Part shown: in pieces, positions 34,603 through 41,849 of the stretch | Position numbering within the stretch: position 1 is the first letter of the stretch | How the letters are laid out: each line of letters starts with the position of its first letter | Origin: Devosia sp. SL43 | Lineage (GTDB): Bacteria; Pseudomonadota; Alphaproteobacteria; Rhizobiales; Devosiaceae | Reading direction: 5' to 3' | DNA length: 64,000 nt | Assembly (NCBI RefSeq): GCF_021729885.1 | Contig: NZ_CP063401.1 | Coordinates: forward strand, 248,001-312,000 | Notes under the pieces: generated by a model | Told to the model about the DNA's origin: nothing | The model's input: only the letters and a program-made list of their open reading frames with translations | The model's database searches: none | Made by a program: the position numbers and the translations under genes

Positions 34603-35490
34603 TCAGGCAGACTTGCCCATTTCACCCGCCAGCGTCCGCACCAGTTGGATCGCCACGCGACCCGAACGCGCGCCACGTGTGGCAGACCATTCGATGGCCC
34701 GCGCCCGCAACGTCTCATCGTCGATGTCCAGCCCGTAGTGGTCGGCATAGGTCCGGACCATCGCGAGAAACGTCGGCTGGTCGCAATTGTGGAAGCCGAG
34801 CCACAGCCCGAACCGATCCGACAGCGACACCTTCTCCTCGACCGCCTCCCCAGGATTGATCGCGGTCGAGCGTTCGTTCTCGATCATGTCGCGCGGCATC
34901 AGGTGACGACGGTTGGAGGTGGCGTAGAACAGCACGTTGTCGGGCCGGCCTTCAAGGCCACCGTCAAGGATGGTCTTGAGTGACTTGTAGCTGGTTTCGC
35001 CATTGTCAAAGCTCAGGTCGTCGCAGAAGACGATGAAGCGCGCGGACTCCTTGCCGATGCGCCGCATCAGGGCAGGGAGGCTCTCCAGATCCTCGCGGGC
35101 GATCTCGATCAGCACCAGCCGCTCAAAGCCTTCCGAGCTCCTTTCGGTAATGTCGCCGTGGATGGCTTTGACCAGCGAACTCTTGCCCATGCCGCGCGCA
35201 CCCCAGAGCAGGGCGTTGTTTGCGCCATGGCCACGGGCGAACTGCTCGGTATTGCGCAACAGGATGTCCTGCACCGCGTCGATACCCTTGAGCATGGCCA
35301 GCGGCACGCGGCTGACGCGCGGCACGGCCATCAACACTCCGGCATCGGCATCCCAGTGGTAGGCATCCGCATCCTCAAGCACCGGAATCGATGCCTTTGG
35401 CATCGGCGCCAACACCTTGAGTGAATTGGCGATTTCGCCGAGGATGCTGGCGATCTGTGCGAGGTGTTGTTTGCTCTTCAAAACGTGCAA
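34603..35490 (-). CDS. DUF815 AAA+-type ATPase
   Basis: A 295-residue predicted P-loop ATPase of family DUF815, common next to yajC in alphaproteobacteria and of unknown role. Walker A is GARGMGKSS (97-105). FIVFCDDLSFDNGETSYKSL is the Walker B region with its acidic pair. ARPDNVLFYATSNRRHLMP-like sequence (here GRPDNVLFYATSNRRHLMP) is the sensor 1 region, and NPGEAVEEKVSLSDRFGLWL the arginine-rich family block. The N-terminal 90 residues are helical. It diverges from yajC and ends 6 bases from repeat copy 1. Confidence 0.87.
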   Translation of the reverse strand: MHVLKSKQHLAQIASILGEIANSLKVLAPMPKASIPVLEDADAYHWDADAGVLMAVPRVSRVPLAMLKGIDAVQDILLRNTEQFARGHGANNALLWGARGMGKSSLVKAIHGDITERSSEGFERLVLIEIAREDLESLPALMRRIGKESARFIVFCDDLSFDNGETSYKSLKTILDGGLEGRPDNVLFYATSNRRHLMPRDMIENERSTAINPGEAVEEKVSLSDRFGLWLGFHNCDQPTFLAMVRTYADHYGLDIDDETLRARAIEWSATRGARSGRVAIQLVRTLAGEMGKSA

Positions 35491-35685: not shown

Positions 35686-36045
35686 ATGTTTGTAACGCCC
35701 GCTTTTGCCCAGGCGACGACCGGTGCGGCCGCCACTGGTGGCGGCATCAACGACATCCTGATCCAGCTCATGCCGATCCTGCTTCTGGTGGTGATCTTCT
35801 GGTTCCTGATCTTCCGCCCGCAGCAGAAGCGCCTGAAGGCCCAGCAGGCCATGCTCTCGGCGATCAAGCGTGGCGACACGGTCGTGACCACCGGCGGCAT
35901 CGTCGGCAAGGTGACCAAGGCCGTTGATGGCGAAGACCTCGAAGTCGAGATTGCCACCGGCGTAAAGGTCAAGCTGGTGCGCGGCATGGTTGCTGACGTG
36001 CGCTCCAAGGGCGAGCCGGTCAACGACAACAAGCCTGCTGCCTAA
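35686..36045 (+). CDS. yajC: Preprotein translocase subunit YajC
   Basis: A 119-residue single-span inner-membrane protein that forms a complex with SecDF. The membrane helix covers about residues 24-43 (ILIQLMPILLLVVIFWFLIF), followed by RPQQKRLKAQQAML, the conserved GDTVVTTGGIVGKV and the ATGVKVKLVRGMV block. An AAGGA ribosome site precedes the ATG. An intrinsic terminator lies between this gene and secDF. Confidence 0.95.
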   Translation: MFVTPAFAQATTGAAATGGGINDILIQLMPILLLVVIFWFLIFRPQQKRLKAQQAMLSAIKRGDTVVTTGGIVGKVTKAVDGEDLEVEIATGVKVKLVRGMVADVRSKGEPVNDNKPAA

Positions 36046-36065
36046 CCGCCGCAGCTCAGATACCG

Positions 36066-36092
36066 CCGGCGCCCAAGGGCGCCGGTTTTTTC
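36066..36092 (+). terminator. Intrinsic terminator between yajC and secDF
   Basis: The perfect arms CCGGCGCCC (36066-36074) and GGGCGCCGG (36077-36085) are followed at once by a run of seven T. It starts 20 bases after the yajC stop and ends 19 bases before the secDF start. It should stop or attenuate yajC transcripts. Confidence 0.88.
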
Positions 36093-36111
36093 CTTTCAGG
36101 ACGTCTCCTAA

Positions 36112-38661
36112 ATGCAGTTTTCGCCGGTCCGCACCGCCATCATCGCCATCGTTGCTCTTCTGGGTGTGCTCTTTGCCGTACCCAGCTTTCTGCCGCAGAC
36201 TGTGCGCGACGCCTGGCCGAGCTTCCTGCCCAAGCAGACCGTCGTACTGGGCCTCGACCTGCAGGGCGGCTCGCACCTGCTGCTTCAGGTCAACGAAGAT
36301 GGCATCGTCACCGAGCGTTTGCAGACCCTGCGCCGTGACGTTCGCAATACGCTGGCCAACGAAAACGGCATCGGCAACCTGATCACGACCGATGAAGCGA
36401 CCAAGTCGCTGAGCATCGAACTGACCGATCCGACGCAGAAGGAAGCGGCCCGTACCGCGATTGCCGCGCTGCAGAACACGGTCAGCAACTCGCTGATATC
36501 GGTTGGTGGCGTACAGGAACTGTCCTTTGGCGAGACCCCCGACGGCAAGTTGACCGTCACGCTGACGCCAGAGGGCATCAGTGAGCGCATGTCGGCTCTC
36601 GTCGCGCAGTCCATCGAAGTCATCCGCAACCGTATCGACGAACTGGGCACCACCGAGCCGTCGATCCAGCGCCAGGGCAGCAACCGCATTCTGGTGCAGG
36701 TGCCCGGCTTCGGTGACTCCACCCGCCTCAAGGACATCATTTCGCGCACCGCGCGCCTGACCTTCCATATGGTCTATCCGGGCATGAGCGCCGCTCAGGC
36801 CGAGGCCCAGGGCCTTCCCGCCGGCACCATGATTCTGCCGAGCCAGGATGGCGGCAACGAGCTGCTGTATGAAGACGTCGCAATCGGCGGCGAGTCGCTT
36901 GTCGACGCCCAGCCGAGCTACGACCAGCAACGCGCCATGCCTGTCGTCAGCTTCCGCTTCGACACGCGTGGTGCCGTCACCTTCGGCCAGATTACCTCGG
37001 CCAATGTGGGCCAGCGCTTCGCCATTGTGCTCGACAACACCGTCATCACGGCCCCACAAATCCAGCAGCCGATCACCGGCGGTACCGGACAGATCAGTGG
37101 CAGCTTCACCACGGCCACGGCCAACGACCTTGCCGTCCTGCTGCGCGCCGGCGCGCTGCCGGCCAGCCTCGACATCGTCGAGGAGCGTACGGTTGACGCG
37201 AGCCTGGGCGCCGACTCCATCCGCTACGGCCTGACCGCCGGTATCGTCGCGGCCGTTCTGGTCGTGGCCTTCATGGTCATCGCCTACGGCATCTGGGGCG
37301 TCTTCGCCAACATCTCGCTGATCCTCAACATCGTGCTGATTTTCGGCGCACTCTCCATGCTCGGCGCGACGCTGACGCTTCCGGGTATCGCCGGTATCGT
37401 ACTGACCATCGGCATGGCCGTGGACGCCAACGTGCTGATCTACGAACGCATGCGGGAGGAACAGAAGGCCGGCCGATCGCCACTGCAGTCGATCAATGCC
37501 GGCTTCGAACGGGCCTGGGGCACCATCGTCGATTCGCACCTGACGCAGCTGATCGCGGCCATCGTGCTCTACTTCCTGGGCTCGGGCCCGGTGCAGGGCT
37601 TTGCCGTTACGCTGGCCCTTGGCATCCTGACCTCGCTGTTCACCTCCTACACCGTGACGCTCTACTTCGTTGGGATGTGGTACCGGTCGGTGCGGCCCAA
37701 AATTCTCAAGATCCAGCATTTCCGCTTCATTCCTGACGGGACCAACATCCCGTTCATGAAGATCAGCCGCTACGTGATCGCCTTCTCGATCGTGGCCAGC
37801 CTGCTCTCCATCGGTTCGGCCTATTTCAAGGGCTTCAACCTCGGTATCGACTTCGTTGGCGGTACAGCCATCGTCATCCAGCACGAGGGTGGACCGGCCG
37901 ATGTCGGCGCCGTTCGCGAACTGCTCGACGGTCTTGATCTGGGCGAAGTGCAGGTCCAGGGCTTCGGCACGCCGGAAGACGTGCTGGTCCGTGTGCAGGC
38001 GCAGGAAGGTGGGCAGGATGCCGACCAGGTCGCGGTGACCAAGGTTCGGGAGGCTCTGGCGACCGAAAACTACACCGTTCGCAGCACCGAGGCTGTCAGC
38101 GGCACGGTGTCGGGCGAGTTGGCCTGGAAGGGCACGATTGCCGTTCTCGTCGCCCTGGGTGCCATCCTGATCTACATCTGGTTCCGTTTCGAATGGCAAT
38201 TCGCCCTGGCGGCGATCGTGACGACCTCGCACGATATCATCATGACCATCGGCCTGTTCTCGATAACCGGGCTGGAGTTCAACCTGACATCGATCGCGGC
38301 TGTGCTGACTCTTGTGGGTCTGTCGCTGAACGAAACCGTCGTGGTGTCGGATCGCGTTCGAGAGAATCTGCGCAAGCATCGAAAGATGCCACTGCCTGAG
38401 CTCATCGACCTGTCGATCAACCAGACCATCGTGCGCACGTCGTTGACGCAATTTACCGTGTTCCTAGCCCTCATCCCGCTGGTGCTGTTCGGTGGCGAAG
38501 TTATCCGCAGCTTCACCATCGCCATGACATTCGGTTCGCTGGTCGGCATGTACTCGTCGATCATCATCAACGGCCCGATTCTGATCAATTTCGGCCTCAA
38601 GTCGAAGGCCGAGGACAAGGATGTTCCGGCCACCAAGACGGCTGACGGCGCCTCGGTCTGA
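36112..38661 (+). CDS. secDF: Fused protein translocase subunits SecD-SecF
   Basis: An 849-residue fusion of SecD and SecF, the proton-driven partner that pulls secreted proteins through SecYEG. The SecD half (about 1-510) begins with a membrane helix, then VLGLDLQGGSHLLLQV and a large periplasmic domain, then helices with GMAVDANVLIYERMREE. The SecF half (about 540-849) shows FNLGIDFVGGTAIVIQ and LVGLSLNETVVVSDRVREN. Twelve membrane segments are expected. Fusions occur in several bacterial groups. A DUF498/Mth938-type gene starts 8 bases after its stop. Confidence 0.96.
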   Translation: MQFSPVRTAIIAIVALLGVLFAVPSFLPQTVRDAWPSFLPKQTVVLGLDLQGGSHLLLQVNEDGIVTERLQTLRRDVRNTLANENGIGNLITTDEATKSLSIELTDPTQKEAARTAIAALQNTVSNSLISVGGVQELSFGETPDGKLTVTLTPEGISERMSALVAQSIEVIRNRIDELGTTEPSIQRQGSNRILVQVPGFGDSTRLKDIISRTARLTFHMVYPGMSAAQAEAQGLPAGTMILPSQDGGNELLYEDVAIGGESLVDAQPSYDQQRAMPVVSFRFDTRGAVTFGQITSANVGQRFAIVLDNTVITAPQIQQPITGGTGQISGSFTTATANDLAVLLRAGALPASLDIVEERTVDASLGADSIRYGLTAGIVAAVLVVAFMVIAYGIWGVFANISLILNIVLIFGALSMLGATLTLPGIAGIVLTIGMAVDANVLIYERMREEQKAGRSPLQSINAGFERAWGTIVDSHLTQLIAAIVLYFLGSGPVQGFAVTLALGILTSLFTSYTVTLYFVGMWYRSVRPKILKIQHFRFIPDGTNIPFMKISRYVIAFSIVASLLSIGSAYFKGFNLGIDFVGGTAIVIQHEGGPADVGAVRELLDGLDLGEVQVQGFGTPEDVLVRVQAQEGGQDADQVAVTKVREALATENYTVRSTEAVSGTVSGELAWKGTIAVLVALGAILIYIWFRFEWQFALAAIVTTSHDIIMTIGLFSITGLEFNLTSIAAVLTLVGLSLNETVVVSDRVRENLRKHRKMPLPELIDLSINQTIVRTSLTQFTVFLALIPLVLFGGEVIRSFTIAMTFGSLVGMYSSIIINGPILINFGLKSKAEDKDVPATKTADGASV

Positions 38662-38669
38662 GGCGCCGC

Positions 38670-39059
38670 ATGACCAGCAACGACACCGGCCATTTCCCAC
38701 AGCAGGTCGGCATCGACGCCTACGGCAATAGCGGCTTCCGCTTTGCCGAAATGTCGCATCGCGGCTCATTGCTGTGCCTGCCCACGGGCATGCATGCCTG
38801 GGCTGTGACGACACCGACCGAGATCACGCTGGAAAGTCTGGCCCCGGTTATTGCCGCCGCCGCTGATATCGACGTGCTGATGGTCGGGCTGGGCCATGAC
38901 ATCATTGGGCTCACACGCGACGTCCGGGAGGCGTTGCGGGCCAACGGGATCATCGTCGAAGCGATCACCACCGGCAGTGCCGTGCGGACCTACAATGTGC
39001 TGCTGGCAGAGCAGCGCGCGGTTGCCGCAGCGCTGATCGCGGTCGAGCGGGTTCGCTAG
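38670..39059 (+). CDS. Mth938-like domain protein (NDUFAF3-related)
   Basis: A 129-residue single-domain protein of the Mth938/DUF498 family, whose human member NDUFAF3 is a complex I assembly factor. Family features are the N-terminal IDAYGNSGFRFAEMSHRGSL, the central IDVLMVGLGHDI, and IIVEAITTGSAVRTYNVLLA, which ends in the conserved TYN. It lies 8 bases after secDF and abuts the squalene-synthase-fold gene (TAGATG). The bacterial function has not been shown from sequence; a role in assembling membrane respiratory complexes is inference. Confidence 0.86.
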   Translation: MTSNDTGHFPQQVGIDAYGNSGFRFAEMSHRGSLLCLPTGMHAWAVTTPTEITLESLAPVIAAAADIDVLMVGLGHDIIGLTRDVREALRANGIIVEAITTGSAVRTYNVLLAEQRAVAAALIAVERVR

Positions 39060-39905
39060 ATGGCTGCCGAGAGTTTTGCCCATGCCGCCGAAGCCCTGCG
39101 CAAGGGCGACCGTGACCGCTACCTGTCGACCCTGGTGCTGAAGGGCGACGATCGCGACGCCGTCACCGCGCTCTATGCCTTCAATGCAGATGTCGCCTCG
39201 ATCCGCGAGCGCGTCTCCGATCCGGCACCGGGCGAAATCCGCTTGCAATGGTGGAGCGACGCCCTGGACGGCGAGGGTCACGGCGTGGTGCGCCAGAATC
39301 CAGTGGCCGACGCGCTGCTCGATACCGTCGCGCGCTACAATATCCCGGCCGGCACCCTGCATCGCCTGATCGCCGCTCGCCGTTTCGATCTTTACGACGA
39401 CCCGATGCCCGACCTCGAAACCTTCGAGGGCTATGCCGGCGAGACCACCTCGACGCTCTACCAACTGGCAGCAATGATCCTCAATGACGGGACTCAGGTG
39501 GAAACCGGCGATGCGGCAGGCCATCTTGGTGTCGCCCATGCCATGATTGGTCACATCAGGGCATTCGGCTATGTCTCCTCCCAAGGCCGTATCATGCTGC
39601 CCTGGTCGATTATGGCGGCCAACGGGGTGGTCGAGGGTAACATTTTTTCGGGACAGGCCAGCGAGGGGGTGGTCGAGGCCCTCGGGCAGGTCGCCGATCT
39701 GGCAGCCAGCCATCTGGCGAAAGCCGAATCCGCAATCGCCGCGCTCCCGGGCAAGCTCAGGCCGGCCTTCGCACCTATCGCAGTGCTGAAAGCACAACTG
39801 GCGCTCTATAAGGCGCGATCCTCCGGCCCCTTTGCCGTGGCGCCTGATGATGCCGACTGGCGCAAGATCGCCCGGCTGGCCTGGTGGACCTGGCGCAACC
39901 GCTAG
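39060..39905 (+). CDS. Squalene/phytoene synthase-fold protein (NDUFAF6-related, probably non-catalytic)
   Basis: A 281-residue protein with the all-helical fold of squalene/phytoene synthases. RDAVTALYAFNADVASIRE and PGEIRLQWWSDALDG align with the first substrate-binding region, but the Asp-rich DxxxD is replaced by D44-VASIR-E50. The second region, HAMIGHIRAFGYVSSQGRIM, also lacks its DxxED. So terpene synthase activity is unlikely. Human NDUFAF6, a complex I assembly factor, is of this type. The gene directly follows the NDUFAF3-like gene, and its stop overlaps that of the convergent thioesterase gene by 4 bases. Confidence 0.84.
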   Translation: MAAESFAHAAEALRKGDRDRYLSTLVLKGDDRDAVTALYAFNADVASIRERVSDPAPGEIRLQWWSDALDGEGHGVVRQNPVADALLDTVARYNIPAGTLHRLIAARRFDLYDDPMPDLETFEGYAGETTSTLYQLAAMILNDGTQVETGDAAGHLGVAHAMIGHIRAFGYVSSQGRIMLPWSIMAANGVVEGNIFSGQASEGVVEALGQVADLAASHLAKAESAIAALPGKLRPAFAPIAVLKAQLALYKARSSGPFAVAPDDADWRKIARLAWWTWRNR

Positions 39906-40351
39906 GCGTGCGGCTCGGCAATGGTGACGAACTCTCCGGTTAGCCGCGCGGCCACCTGGCCGGCAAAGCTAAGCTCGGCAACGACAGTCAGGCGTGCCTT
40001 GCCACGGCGCGTGAGCATGTGGAGGAAGGCGGGCCAGTTTGCCTCATCTAGACGAGCGATGGCGGTGAAATCCCCCGCTATCGGAGCCAGGTAGTCGATC
40101 TGGCTGCGATGGATCACCAACTGGCAGGCAATCGCCTCCTGGTCCAGCCGCAGATGCAGCGCCGACCAGGCCGCAAGCACGCCCAGCGTCGAGACGCTGC
40201 CGCCGAAGGCGGTACCGTGGACGTTGATGTTGGGGCCGAGCGGCGCCGACAGTTCGACATGTCCCGGCGCCGAGGAAACGACCCGCACGGCCATGGCCCG
40301 CGACAGCGGGATATGGTCGTGCAGATAAGTTTCCAGCGCCGCCGGTGTCAC
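39902..40351 (-). CDS. YiiD-type hotdog thioesterase
   Basis: A 149-residue protein with a hotdog fold of the YiiD C-terminal (putative thioesterase) family. Key stretches are [20 protein letters not shown] (helix and active-site loop), [20 protein letters not shown] and the strand [20 protein letters not shown]. It likely acts on acyl-CoA or acyl-ACP in the cytoplasm; chain length is unknown. Its ATG overlaps the trmFO stop by 4 bases, and it converges with the NDUFAF6-like gene by a 4-base overlap. Confidence 0.8.
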
Positions 40352-41730
40352 GCCCAGGCCTGCAGGTCTTCGAGCGCGCGCGAGGTGATGGCGCGGCGCT
40401 TGGCGATGGTCTTGTCATTGCCGCGCCAGCGCGCGACGCCTTCGGGCCTGACGATCGCCACTTCCGGAAACAGTCCGAAATTGACGTTCATCGGCTGGAA
40501 GCTGCGCGCGCCGCTATAGCCCTCGGCTTCGATATGGCCGCCGGTGATGTGGGCCACCAGCGCACCGAGTGCGGTGGTGATCGGCGGTGTGACCAGCGTT
40601 TCGCCCCGCGCGTCCGCTGCAGCGAGGCGACCGGTGATCAGACCGATTGCGGCGCTCTCGACATAGCCCTCGACGCCGGTGACCTGGCCGGCAAAGCGGA
40701 TGCGGGGATCGGCTTTCAGCTTGAGATCAGCCCCCAACACCTTGGGCGAGTTGATGAAGGTGTTGCGATGCAGCCCGCCAAGGCGGGCGAATTGTGCGTT
40801 CTCCAGTCCGGGGATCATGCGGAAGATGTCGGCCTGGATGCCGTAGCGCATTTTGGTCTGGAAGCCGACCATGTTCCACAGCGTGCCCAGCGCATTGTCC
40901 TGCCGGAGCTGCACGATGGCGTAGCATTTGACCGTTGGATTGCGAGGATTGGTCAGGCCCACCGGCTTCATCGGGCCGTGGCGCAGGGTCTCGACGCCGC
41001 GCTCCGCCATGACTTCGATGGGCAGGCAGCCGTCGAAGTAGGGGACGTGTTCCCAATCCTTGAATTCATGCAGCGGCGCGGTCTTTAGGGCCTCGACGAA
41101 GGCAAAATACTGGTCCTTGTCCATCGGACAGTTCAGATAGTCGGCGCCTGTGCCGCCCGGGCCGGCCTTGTCGTAGCGCGACTGGGCCCAGACGACGTCC
41201 ATGTTGATGCTGTCCTTGTGGACGATCGGGGCGATGGCGTCGAAGAAGGCGAGGGCATCTTCGCCGGTCTTGGCCAGAATCGCTTCGGCCAAAGCAGGGG
41301 AGGTCAGCGGGCCGCTGGCGATGATGACGTTCTGCCAGTCCTGCGGCGGCCAGCCCGCGATCTCTTCGCGGATGACGGTGATATTGGCGTGATTATGGAT
41401 GGCGCGGGTCACCTCGGCGGAGAAGCCGTGGCGATCCACGGCCAGCGCACCGCCGGCGGGCAGCTTGTGCAAATCGGCGGCGCGCATGATCAGCGAATTG
41501 CGGCGGCGCATTTCTTCGTGCAGCAGACCGACGGCATTCTGTTCGTGGTCGTCGGAGCGGAAGCTGTTGGAGCAGACCAGTTCGGCGAAGCTGTCGGTGC
41601 TATGCGCATCGGTGGCTTTGACGCCGCGCATTTCGTGGACAATGACCTTGGCGCCGGCTTCGGCGGCCTGCCACGCGGCCTCGGACCCGGCGAGTCCGCC
41701 GCCAATGATATGAATGGGTTGGTTTTGCAT
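40348..41730 (-). CDS. trmFO: Methylenetetrahydrofolate--tRNA-(uracil-5-)-methyltransferase
   Basis: A 460-residue FAD enzyme that makes 5-methyluridine at position 54 of tRNA using methylenetetrahydrofolate. The N-terminal [20 protein letters not shown] is the FAD-binding GxGxxG, and [20 protein letters not shown] and [20 protein letters not shown] follow as in the family (related to GidA/MnmG). [20 protein letters not shown] is the C-terminal signature. I prefer the ATG at 41730 because it places the FAD motif at the N-terminus; an ATG ten codons upstream exists. Confidence 0.95.
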
Positions 41731-41849
41731 TGCTGGCAGATAGCAAGTGCCATAGGGCAACGCAACTGAAGAGGGGTTCAGGCTATCACGCGCTCAAGCT
41801 GTGGGGATAAGTTGTTGGCAATATGTGGCTTTGTGCACGTCTTGGGCAG

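What the first reader, a model, noticed from the sequence alone, without database searches (positions are those of the whole stretch)
35686..39905. SecDF/YajC cluster carries relatives of two mitochondrial complex I assembly factors
Directly after secDF (8 bases) come a Mth938-fold protein (NDUFAF3 family) and a squalene-synthase-fold protein (NDUFAF6 family), joined TAG-ATG. In mitochondria both families act in early complex I assembly. The tight linkage to membrane-protein insertion genes suggests an ancestral membrane-complex assembly unit. Conservation of part of this neighbourhood in alphaproteobacteria has, I believe, been noted before, but the bacterial function is not settled.
Basis: partly seen in the sequence, partly recalled or inferred. 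Interest (0 to 1): 0.6.

Follow-up and report, generated by a model that had tools for sequence, protein, structure and literature searches.

The report
Complex I assembly-factor relatives beside SecDF
Two small bacterial genes from the families of human helper proteins that build the first enzyme of the respiratory chain sit next to a protein-export gene; one looks like a squalene-making enzyme that has lost its active site but kept its shape, and the other is found almost only in bacteria that have that respiratory enzyme.

Summary
In detail: yajC, fused secDF, a DUF498/Mth938 gene (8 bases on) and a squalene-synthase-fold gene (TAG then ATG) lie at 35686-39905. The fourth gene is a pseudoenzyme: none of 201 proteins compared (the window's included) keeps the first Asp motif. 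Its predicted fold is intact (pLDDT 94.7; Z 29.8 to a CrtM-like enzyme). It falls in one clade apart from HpnC/HpnD/CrtB; some genomes carry true hpnCDE genes divergently beside it.

DUF498 genomes nearly always have complex I: 205 of 208 in an alphaproteobacterial sample, 96 of 98 in non-alpha Pseudomonadota. Non-alpha genomes without complex I rarely have DUF498 (2 of 54). But 137 of 335 NuoD-positive alpha genomes lack it. Nine DUF498-lacking non-alpha families, one genome each, have NuoD frames long enough for an E. coli-type NuoCD fusion.

The linkage argument is weaker: the neighbourhood is a broad conserved block with unrelated genes, and 16 of 18 non-alpha loci read have no secDF upstream of DUF498. 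Best reading: alphaproteobacterial NDUFAF3/NDUFAF6-family helpers of clade-A complex I. Function is inferred; eukaryotic orthology could not be tested here; part is already in print.

The parts
35686..36045 (+). yajC, Sec translocon accessory subunit
   Evidence: PF02699 8.7e-27, TIGR00739 over cut-off
36065..36086 (+). terminator-like hairpin (9 pairs, 8 G-C, T run) between yajC and secDF
   Evidence: a consensus match only, 3 such sites found in the region against a mean of 2.7 in shuffles
36112..38661 (+). secDF, fused SecD-SecF, 849 aa
38670..39059 (+). DUF498/Mth938-fold gene (NDUFAF3/AAMDC superfamily), 129 aa
   Evidence: PF04430 1e-28; profile of its relatives matches solved structures 2fvt, 2fi9, 3cpk, 2k2e, 2gm2 and human C11orf67 (AAMDC) 2ab1
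39060..39905 (+). pseudo-squalene synthase (SQS_PSY fold, both Asp motifs lost; NDUFAF6-like), 281 aa
   Evidence: PF00494 1.3e-52; motif loss; tree; AlphaFold2 model pLDDT 94.7, pTM 0.92; fold matches
34603..35490 (-). DUF815 AAA-type ATPase, conserved neighbour in 93 of 128 loci
40348..41760 (-). trmFO; in other genomes the immediate convergent neighbour of the pseudo-squalene synthase in 46 of 92 loci
   Evidence: in the window a YiiD_C thioesterase gene (39902-40351) lies between

Best explanation
secDF, the DUF498 gene and the pseudo-squalene-synthase gene are probably co-transcribed in this genome (inferred from spacing). The last two are most likely alphaproteobacterial members of the families that gave mitochondria NDUFAF3 and NDUFAF6: soluble or membrane-peripheral helpers in the assembly of the Q module / NuoH junction of mitochondrial-type (clade A) complex I. 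The pseudo-squalene synthase has lost the residues for metal and diphosphate chemistry but kept its fold and a new set of conserved residues, so it probably works by binding a hydrophobic ligand or a subunit rather than by catalysis. Shown here: family membership, motif loss, intact predicted fold, one clade, tight and widespread gene order, and one-way co-occurrence of DUF498 with complex I. Inferred: action on complex I, step of action, ligand or partner, and any functional coupling to SecDF.
For: DUF498 nearly implies complex I: 205 of 208 DUF498-positive genomes in the class sample have NuoD or NuoH, and the three exceptions are drafts of 77%, 68% and 96% completeness. Non-alpha part of the phylum sample, 231 genomes: D+N+ 96, D+N- 2, D-N+ 81, D-N- 52 (NuoH checks). 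One genome from each of nine DUF498-lacking non-alpha families with low NuoD scores was looked at: all nine have NuoD in open frames of 593-632 aa, the size of a NuoCD fusion; a tenth genome (G389), also without DUF498, has 417 aa. Of the 150 genomes in the capped list of strong matches to the window's SQS-like protein, 147 have complex I. None of 103 proteins, 18 and 80 keeps the first Asp motif. A new signature (D17, R20, E44, R61, Q63, W64, R107; 93-100% of 41 rows) is not the prevailing residue in the enzymes, which speaks for function rather than decay. NDUFAF6 and its orthologues are reported to lack both DxxxD motifs (PMC8007014, passages). The own genome has a nuo operon about 112 kb away and an NDUFAF7-family gene (the family's link to NDUFAF7 is recalled).
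Against: 137 of 335 NuoD-positive class genomes lack DUF498, and DUF498 is missing while secDF, the pseudo-squalene synthase and trmFO stay in seven loci, so neither gene is needed for complex I in general. G405, a 1.5-Mb genome rated 100% complete, has DUF498 but no NuoD or NuoH. Complex-I-negative alphaproteobacteria in the sample are nearly all small genomes; with size matched the difference is only 13 of 84 against 0 of 27, p = 0.035, not corrected for kinship. In the non-alpha sample the pattern may reflect few independent events. A tblastn of eight Nuo proteins of the own genome against 259 fetched loci found no nuo gene near these genes (no positive control in that run). No eukaryotic NDUFAF3/NDUFAF6 sequence could be compared; the only human match was C11orf67/AAMDC.
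Confidence: 0.6

Rival explanations
1. The neighbourhood is conserved only because alphaproteobacterial chromosomes keep this whole block. DUF498 and the pseudo-squalene synthase have no special tie to SecDF or to each other.
For: The block surE-pcm-nlpD-DUF815-yajC-secDF-DUF498-(cassette, mostly reversed)-pseudoSQS-trmFO-uvrA-ssb-gyrA recurs with functionally unrelated members. The pseudo-squalene synthase is directly next to DUF498 in only 8 of 92 class-wide loci.
Against: DUF498 follows secDF directly in 114 of 128 loci, within 50 nt in 108 of those, and also follows secD-secF in two non-alpha loci, L157 and L158. That is operon-type coupling, not mere synteny.
Confidence: 0.3
2. The two proteins serve a general lipid, isoprenoid or quinone function, for example binding a polyprenyl compound, and correlate with complex I only because respiring, ubiquinone-using bacteria have both.
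For: The fold is that of prenyl-diphosphate-coupling enzymes, and SQS genes on the opposite strand lie directly before the pseudo-squalene synthase in 14 loci, true hpnC/hpnD where checked. DUF498 is absent from many complex-I-bearing genomes.
Against: Both Asp motifs are gone. The complex-I-negative non-alpha genomes lacking DUF498 include ones of 3-5 Mb, so small genome size does not explain them, although their quinone metabolism was not examined.
Confidence: 0.2
3. The SQS_PSY protein is an active squalene, presqualene or phytoene synthase.
For: PF00494 at 1.3e-52 and best NCBIfam model HpnD.
Against: Motif 1 (DDxxD in the enzymes) and motif 2 (RDxxED) are both lost in the window protein and its clade. 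It scores 105 bits against HpnD's cut-off 278.6. The genome has a separate CrtB-like protein with both motifs.
Confidence: 0.03

Closest known systems
NDUFAF6 (C8orf38) family, mitochondrial complex I assembly factor
   Same: Squalene/phytoene-synthase fold; both DxxxD motifs lost (PMC8007014, passages read, for the eukaryotic side; for the bacterial side)
   Different: Bacterial, encoded beside secDF; eukaryotic sequences were not compared here and no bacterial function has been shown here
NDUFAF3 (C3orf60) / AAMDC, Mth938 fold
   Same: Mth938 domain PF04430; the profile reaches human C11orf67/AAMDC 2ab1 at 3.1e-6
   Different: Whether it is nearer to NDUFAF3 than to AAMDC was not testable; NDUFAF3's place in this superfamily is recalled
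HpnC, HpnD, HpnE squalene pathway and CrtB/CrtM
   Same: Same fold (Z 29.8, rmsd 2.5, 271 aligned to CrtM-like 8isa); hpnC-hpnD-hpnE is divergently adjacent in L010, all over their NCBIfam cut-offs
   Different: Catalytic Asp motifs absent; separate clade, support 100/100

Membership tests
Mth938/DUF498 (PF04430), NDUFAF3/AAMDC superfamily | Mth938 domain over the curated cut-off | tested here: met
   99.9 bits against cut-off 33
NDUFAF3 proper | Closer to NDUFAF3 than to AAMDC or other Mth938 proteins | not testable with these tools
   No NDUFAF3 sequence was at hand; the only human match in the PDB search was C11orf67/AAMDC
NDUFAF6 | SQS_PSY fold with both DxxxD motifs lost | tested here: met
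   Fold. Motifs. NDUFAF6 lacks them per PMC8007014
NDUFAF6 | Monophyly with eukaryotic NDUFAF6 | not testable with these tools
   No eukaryotic sequence collection; PMC8007014 used four bacterial orthologues as outgroup to NDU1 orthologues
Complex I assembly factor | Distribution confined, with few exceptions, to genomes with complex I | tested here: met
   DUF498 205 of 208 and 96 of 98; SQS-like gene 147 of 150 listed. Exceptions G011, G253, G383, G405, G468 (DUF498) and G011, G372, G383 (SQS-like); G405 looks real
Complex I assembly factor | Needed for complex I assembly | not testable with these tools
   Needs mutants
Active squalene/phytoene synthase (HpnC, HpnD, CrtB) | Two Asp-rich motifs | tested here: not met
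Active squalene/phytoene synthase (HpnC, HpnD, CrtB) | Over the NCBIfam equivalog cut-off | tested here: not met
   HpnD 105 bits against 278.6; HpnC 46.3 against 250.45

The most novel reading that the evidence does not exclude
DUF498 and the pseudo-squalene synthase are a pre-mitochondrial assembly module dedicated to clade-A (mitochondrial-type) complex I and irrelevant to E. coli-type clade-E complex I. The second protein arose in the alphaproteobacterial line by duplication of a squalene-pathway gene (hpnD-like) beside hpnCDE at this very locus, lost catalysis, and was re-used as a hydrophobic-ligand or subunit chaperone, working at the SecDF-assisted insertion of the NuoH/Q-module junction.
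Probability: 0.2. Interest if true: 0.7.

Novelty: new member of a known kind. Interest (0 to 1): 0.42.

Why it matters
Mutations in human NDUFAF3 and NDUFAF6 cause complex I deficiency (NDUFAF3: title of Saada 2009 as cited in PMC3436739; NDUFAF6 recalled), yet how these proteins act is unsettled. If their bacterial relatives serve clade-A complex I only, a bacterium carrying both complex I types gives a clean internal control: Rhodobacter sphaeroides has a clade-A and a clade-E enzyme (PMC4859585, passages). The role of both proteins then becomes testable in a laboratory bacterium. It would also show how a biosynthetic enzyme became an assembly helper before mitochondria arose.

Tried and rejected
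Linkage to SecDF as direct evidence of function: rejected as weak, since the same block holds unrelated genes.

Active terpenoid enzyme: rejected on motif loss.

Linkage to nuo genes: eight Nuo proteins of the own genome found nothing in 259 fetched loci by tblastn (no positive control in that run).

Direct comparison with eukaryotic NDUFAF3/NDUFAF6: not possible; PDB profile searches found C11orf67/AAMDC and prokaryotic Mth938 proteins for DUF498 (four further matches above E 0.4 look like chance), and prenyl-coupling enzymes for the other.

Defence-system reading of DUF815 and both genes: no PADLOC family.

Literature: the listings of searches showed no paper on bacterial mutants of these genes or on the clade-A association; only listings and, for seven papers, found passages were seen (PMC7050145, PMC11263603 and PMC10897435 added nothing used here). 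The papers I looked for by DOI (Saada 2009; Elurbe and Huynen 2016, DOI recalled) are not held, and Lemire 2017 was seen only as a citation, so no claim of absence from print is made. My recollection is that Saada 2009 already noted the conserved neighbourhood with Sec genes; that is recalled, not read.

Row dropping and soft counts: 12 of 140 fetched class loci (L004-L143) were left out of neighbourhood counts because my ORF picking missed DUF498 there, as were 2 of 20 non-alpha loci (L145, L149). Tables of matches stop at about 150 rows, so position counts and the SQS-like counts rest on listed rows only. In the class sample any NuoD match at E <= 0.001 counted as present, weak fragments included. 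In the phylum sample eight weak NuoD matches were counted as absent, and G493 and G506 as present because NuoH was found. G383 was left out of the size-matched test because it is 3.9 Mb, and the list of small genomes was picked by eye. The opposite-strand SQS genes were scored by eye from the printed alignment: 21 of 24 keep motif 1, three (L004, L027, L069) do not. The second Asp motif was scored by eye and could not be read in a few truncated or misaligned rows. The 80 named loci are the best 80 of 577 relatives, so they are not an independent sample. The names pcm, uvrA, ssb, gyrA and sod in the block are my reading of the sequences, not a family search; 'membrane' for the Urate_ox_N-like gene likewise.

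Full report
What is there. The window carries yajC (35686-36045), a fused secDF (36112-38661, 849 aa), a DUF498/Mth938 gene (38670-39059, 129 aa) and an SQS_PSY gene (39060-39905, 281 aa), all on the + strand. The gap between secDF and DUF498 is eight bases, and the DUF498 stop is followed at once by the next ATG. A terminator-like hairpin lies between yajC and secDF (36065-36086), so secDF-DUF498-SQS may be a unit of its own; this is a pattern match only. The 80 best relatives of the SQS-like gene in the GTDB contigs come from records titled as Hyphomicrobiales or genera that I recall as such (records very near the own genome may be left out there). The own genome (4.26 Mb, 99.9% complete) has a nuo operon about 112 kb away (genes for NuoD, E, F, G and H and three antiporter-like subunits recognised by Pfam), a PF02636 methyltransferase gene of the NDUFAF7 family (that family link is recalled) and a separate CrtB-like protein.

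The fourth gene is a pseudoenzyme. In 103 SQS-like proteins (the window's included) encoded on the strand of DUF498, or of secDF where DUF498 was not called, the first Asp motif is absent in every one and the second is absent wherever that region could be read; typical forms are YAFNxEIARTREVVSEP and GLLRAVPFHA. The first motif is also absent in 18 further loci, most chosen because DUF498 was missing or on another contig, and in 80 of 80 named loci. By contrast 21 of 24 SQS genes on the opposite strand keep motif 1; in L010 they are HpnC and HpnD, with HpnE beside them, all over NCBIfam cut-offs. A tree of 66 proteins, with 40 pseudo-squalene synthases drawn at random plus the window's, puts those 41 in one group with 100/100 support, apart from HpnC, HpnD and CrtB (the bootstrap had not fully settled). 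Residues D17, R20, E44, R61, Q63, W64 and R107 are kept in 93-100% of this group and are not the prevailing residue in the enzymes (letters are the group's majority residue, the window has D at 44), so the gene seems to be under selection for something else. The AlphaFold2 model is confident (pLDDT 94.7, pTM 0.92) and matches CrtM-like enzymes over the whole length (TM 0.85; Z 29.8, rmsd 2.5, 271 residues). Two relatives and the window protein score nearer to HpnD than to HpnC (for example 127.7 against 61.7 bits).

Neighbourhood. Of 140 class loci fetched, DUF498 was called in 128. There secDF is directly upstream on the same strand in 114, within 50 nt in 108 of those. A pseudo-squalene synthase follows on the same strand in 92, but directly in only 8 (a lower bound, since spurious ORFs may intervene). 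Often a cassette, mostly reversed, lies between: a Urate_ox_N-like gene (called in 59 of 128 loci; Pfam for one), a gene read as sod (38) or hpnE with hpnD/hpnC (21). The block extends to surE, pcm, nlpD and DUF815 on one side and trmFO, uvrA, ssb and gyrA on the other; some of these names are read by eye. Of 20 non-alpha loci fetched DUF498 was called in 18. Two (L157, L158) show yajC-secD-secF-DUF498; in 13 the upstream neighbour is one conserved gene on the opposite strand, an aminotransferase followed by homoserine dehydrogenase in L148; four (L148, L152, L161, L163) have nlpD and surE on the other side, and L162 has a sigma-70 family gene there. Family f190, with 38 of the 98 DUF498-positive non-alpha genomes, was read in one locus only (L157). 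Eight Nuo proteins found no match in 259 fetched loci. Linkage to SecDF is therefore tight and operon-like in alphaproteobacteria, but linkage alone cannot carry the assembly-unit argument.

Phylogenetic profile, alphaproteobacteria. In a class sample of 385 genomes DUF498 is found in 208 and NuoD in 335: both in 198, DUF498 alone in 10, NuoD alone in 137, neither in 40. NuoH was then found in 7 of those 10, leaving G011 (77% complete), G253 (68%) and G383 (96%). Of 28 genomes at least 90% complete and at most 5% contaminated without NuoD and NuoH, only G383 has DUF498. The test has low power because the complex-I-negative genomes are nearly all small: with size at most 2.0 Mb and completeness at least 90%, DUF498 is in 13 of 84 complex-I-positive and 0 of 27 negative genomes, p = 0.035 without correction for kinship. 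The window's SQS-like protein matched 240 of 385 genomes at E <= 0.001, but weak matches include true enzymes; strong matches were listed for 150 genomes, of which 147 have complex I (exceptions G011, G372, G383) and 16 lack DUF498.

Phylogenetic profile, other Pseudomonadota. In a phylum sample of 387 genomes (at least 90% complete) DUF498 is in 214 and NuoD in 339. Among the 231 non-alpha genomes the counts are D+N+ 96, D+N- 2, D-N+ 81, D-N- 52 (Fisher p = 9e-13, not corrected for kinship). The two exceptions are G405 (1.5 Mb, rated 100% complete) and G468 (93% complete), both also without NuoH. Complex-I-negative genomes here include ones of 3-5 Mb, which eases the small-genome confounder, though the number of independent events may be small. 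One genome from each of nine DUF498-lacking families with low NuoD scores was looked at: all nine have NuoD in open frames of 593-632 aa, as expected for a fused NuoCD; a tenth, G389, has a frame of 417 aa and also lacks DUF498. NuoC itself was not searched for. This suggests, but does not prove, that DUF498 goes with clade A/B rather than clade E complex I. Clade names follow PMC4859585 (passages); that E. coli NuoCD is a fusion of about 600 aa is recalled.

How it most likely works. DUF498 and the pseudo-squalene synthase are most likely helpers of clade-A complex I assembly, as NDUFAF3 and NDUFAF6 are in mitochondria. A review lists NDUFAF3 with the Q module and NDUFAF6 with the proximal membrane module (PMC10910544, passages). 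An evolutionary-rate study describes NDUFAF3, C8orf38 (NDUFAF6) and C2orf56 (NDUFAF7) as a tightly co-evolving triple (PMC3436739, passages). PMC8007014 states that NDUFAF6 and orthologues lack both DxxxD motifs and uses bacterial orthologues as outgroup (passages). The bacterial motif loss found here is the same feature. Action on complex I, and any role of SecDF, are inferred.

What speaks against it. Many genomes have complex I without DUF498; DUF498 is missing while the pseudo-squalene synthase stays in seven loci with secDF and trmFO in place (L166, L169, L170, L172, L174, L177, L178); two alphaproteobacterial loci, L126 and L180, show secDF-DUF498 with no pseudo-squalene synthase in the stretch read; G405 has DUF498 without complex I; and no mutant data were seen in the listings of the held library. 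Orthology with the eukaryotic proteins was not tested. C11orf67/AAMDC, a different human Mth938 protein, is the only human match by sequence.

Verdict. A relation between NDUFAF6 and bacterial proteins is already in print, so the genes are new members of known kinds; what is added here is the pseudoenzyme state in every relative compared, the hpnCDE neighbourhood, and the hint of a tie to one type of complex I, which a bacterium with both types could test directly.

Noticed in passing
window 36065-36086: G+C-rich hairpin with a T run between yajC and secDF; may end many yajC transcripts and make secDF-DUF498-pseudoSQS a separate unit.
   Followed up: no
window 34603-35490 (-): DUF815 AAA-type ATPase of unknown role, present in 93 of 128 alphaproteobacterial loci, usually between nlpD and yajC.
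   Followed up: no
L010:7157-10172 and similar loci (hpnE called in 21 of 128): hpnE-hpnD-hpnC squalene genes divergently placed beside the pseudo-squalene synthase, suggesting where the pseudoenzyme came from.
   Followed up: partly
G405 (f197, 1.5 Mb), G383 (f116): DUF498 present without NuoD or NuoH; G405 is rated 100% complete and is the clearest exception to the complex I association.
   Followed up: partly
L166, L169, L170, L172, L174, L177, L178: DUF498 not found in the genome while secDF, the pseudo-squalene synthase and trmFO stay in place.
   Followed up: partly
L039:6412-7011 (-) and cluster members in 59 of 128 loci: About 200-aa gene matching Urate_ox_N (one member checked), mostly in reverse between DUF498 and the pseudo-squalene synthase.
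   Followed up: no
L148, L152, L161, L163: DUF498 beside nlpD and surE also outside alphaproteobacteria, hinting at an older shared block.
   Followed up: no
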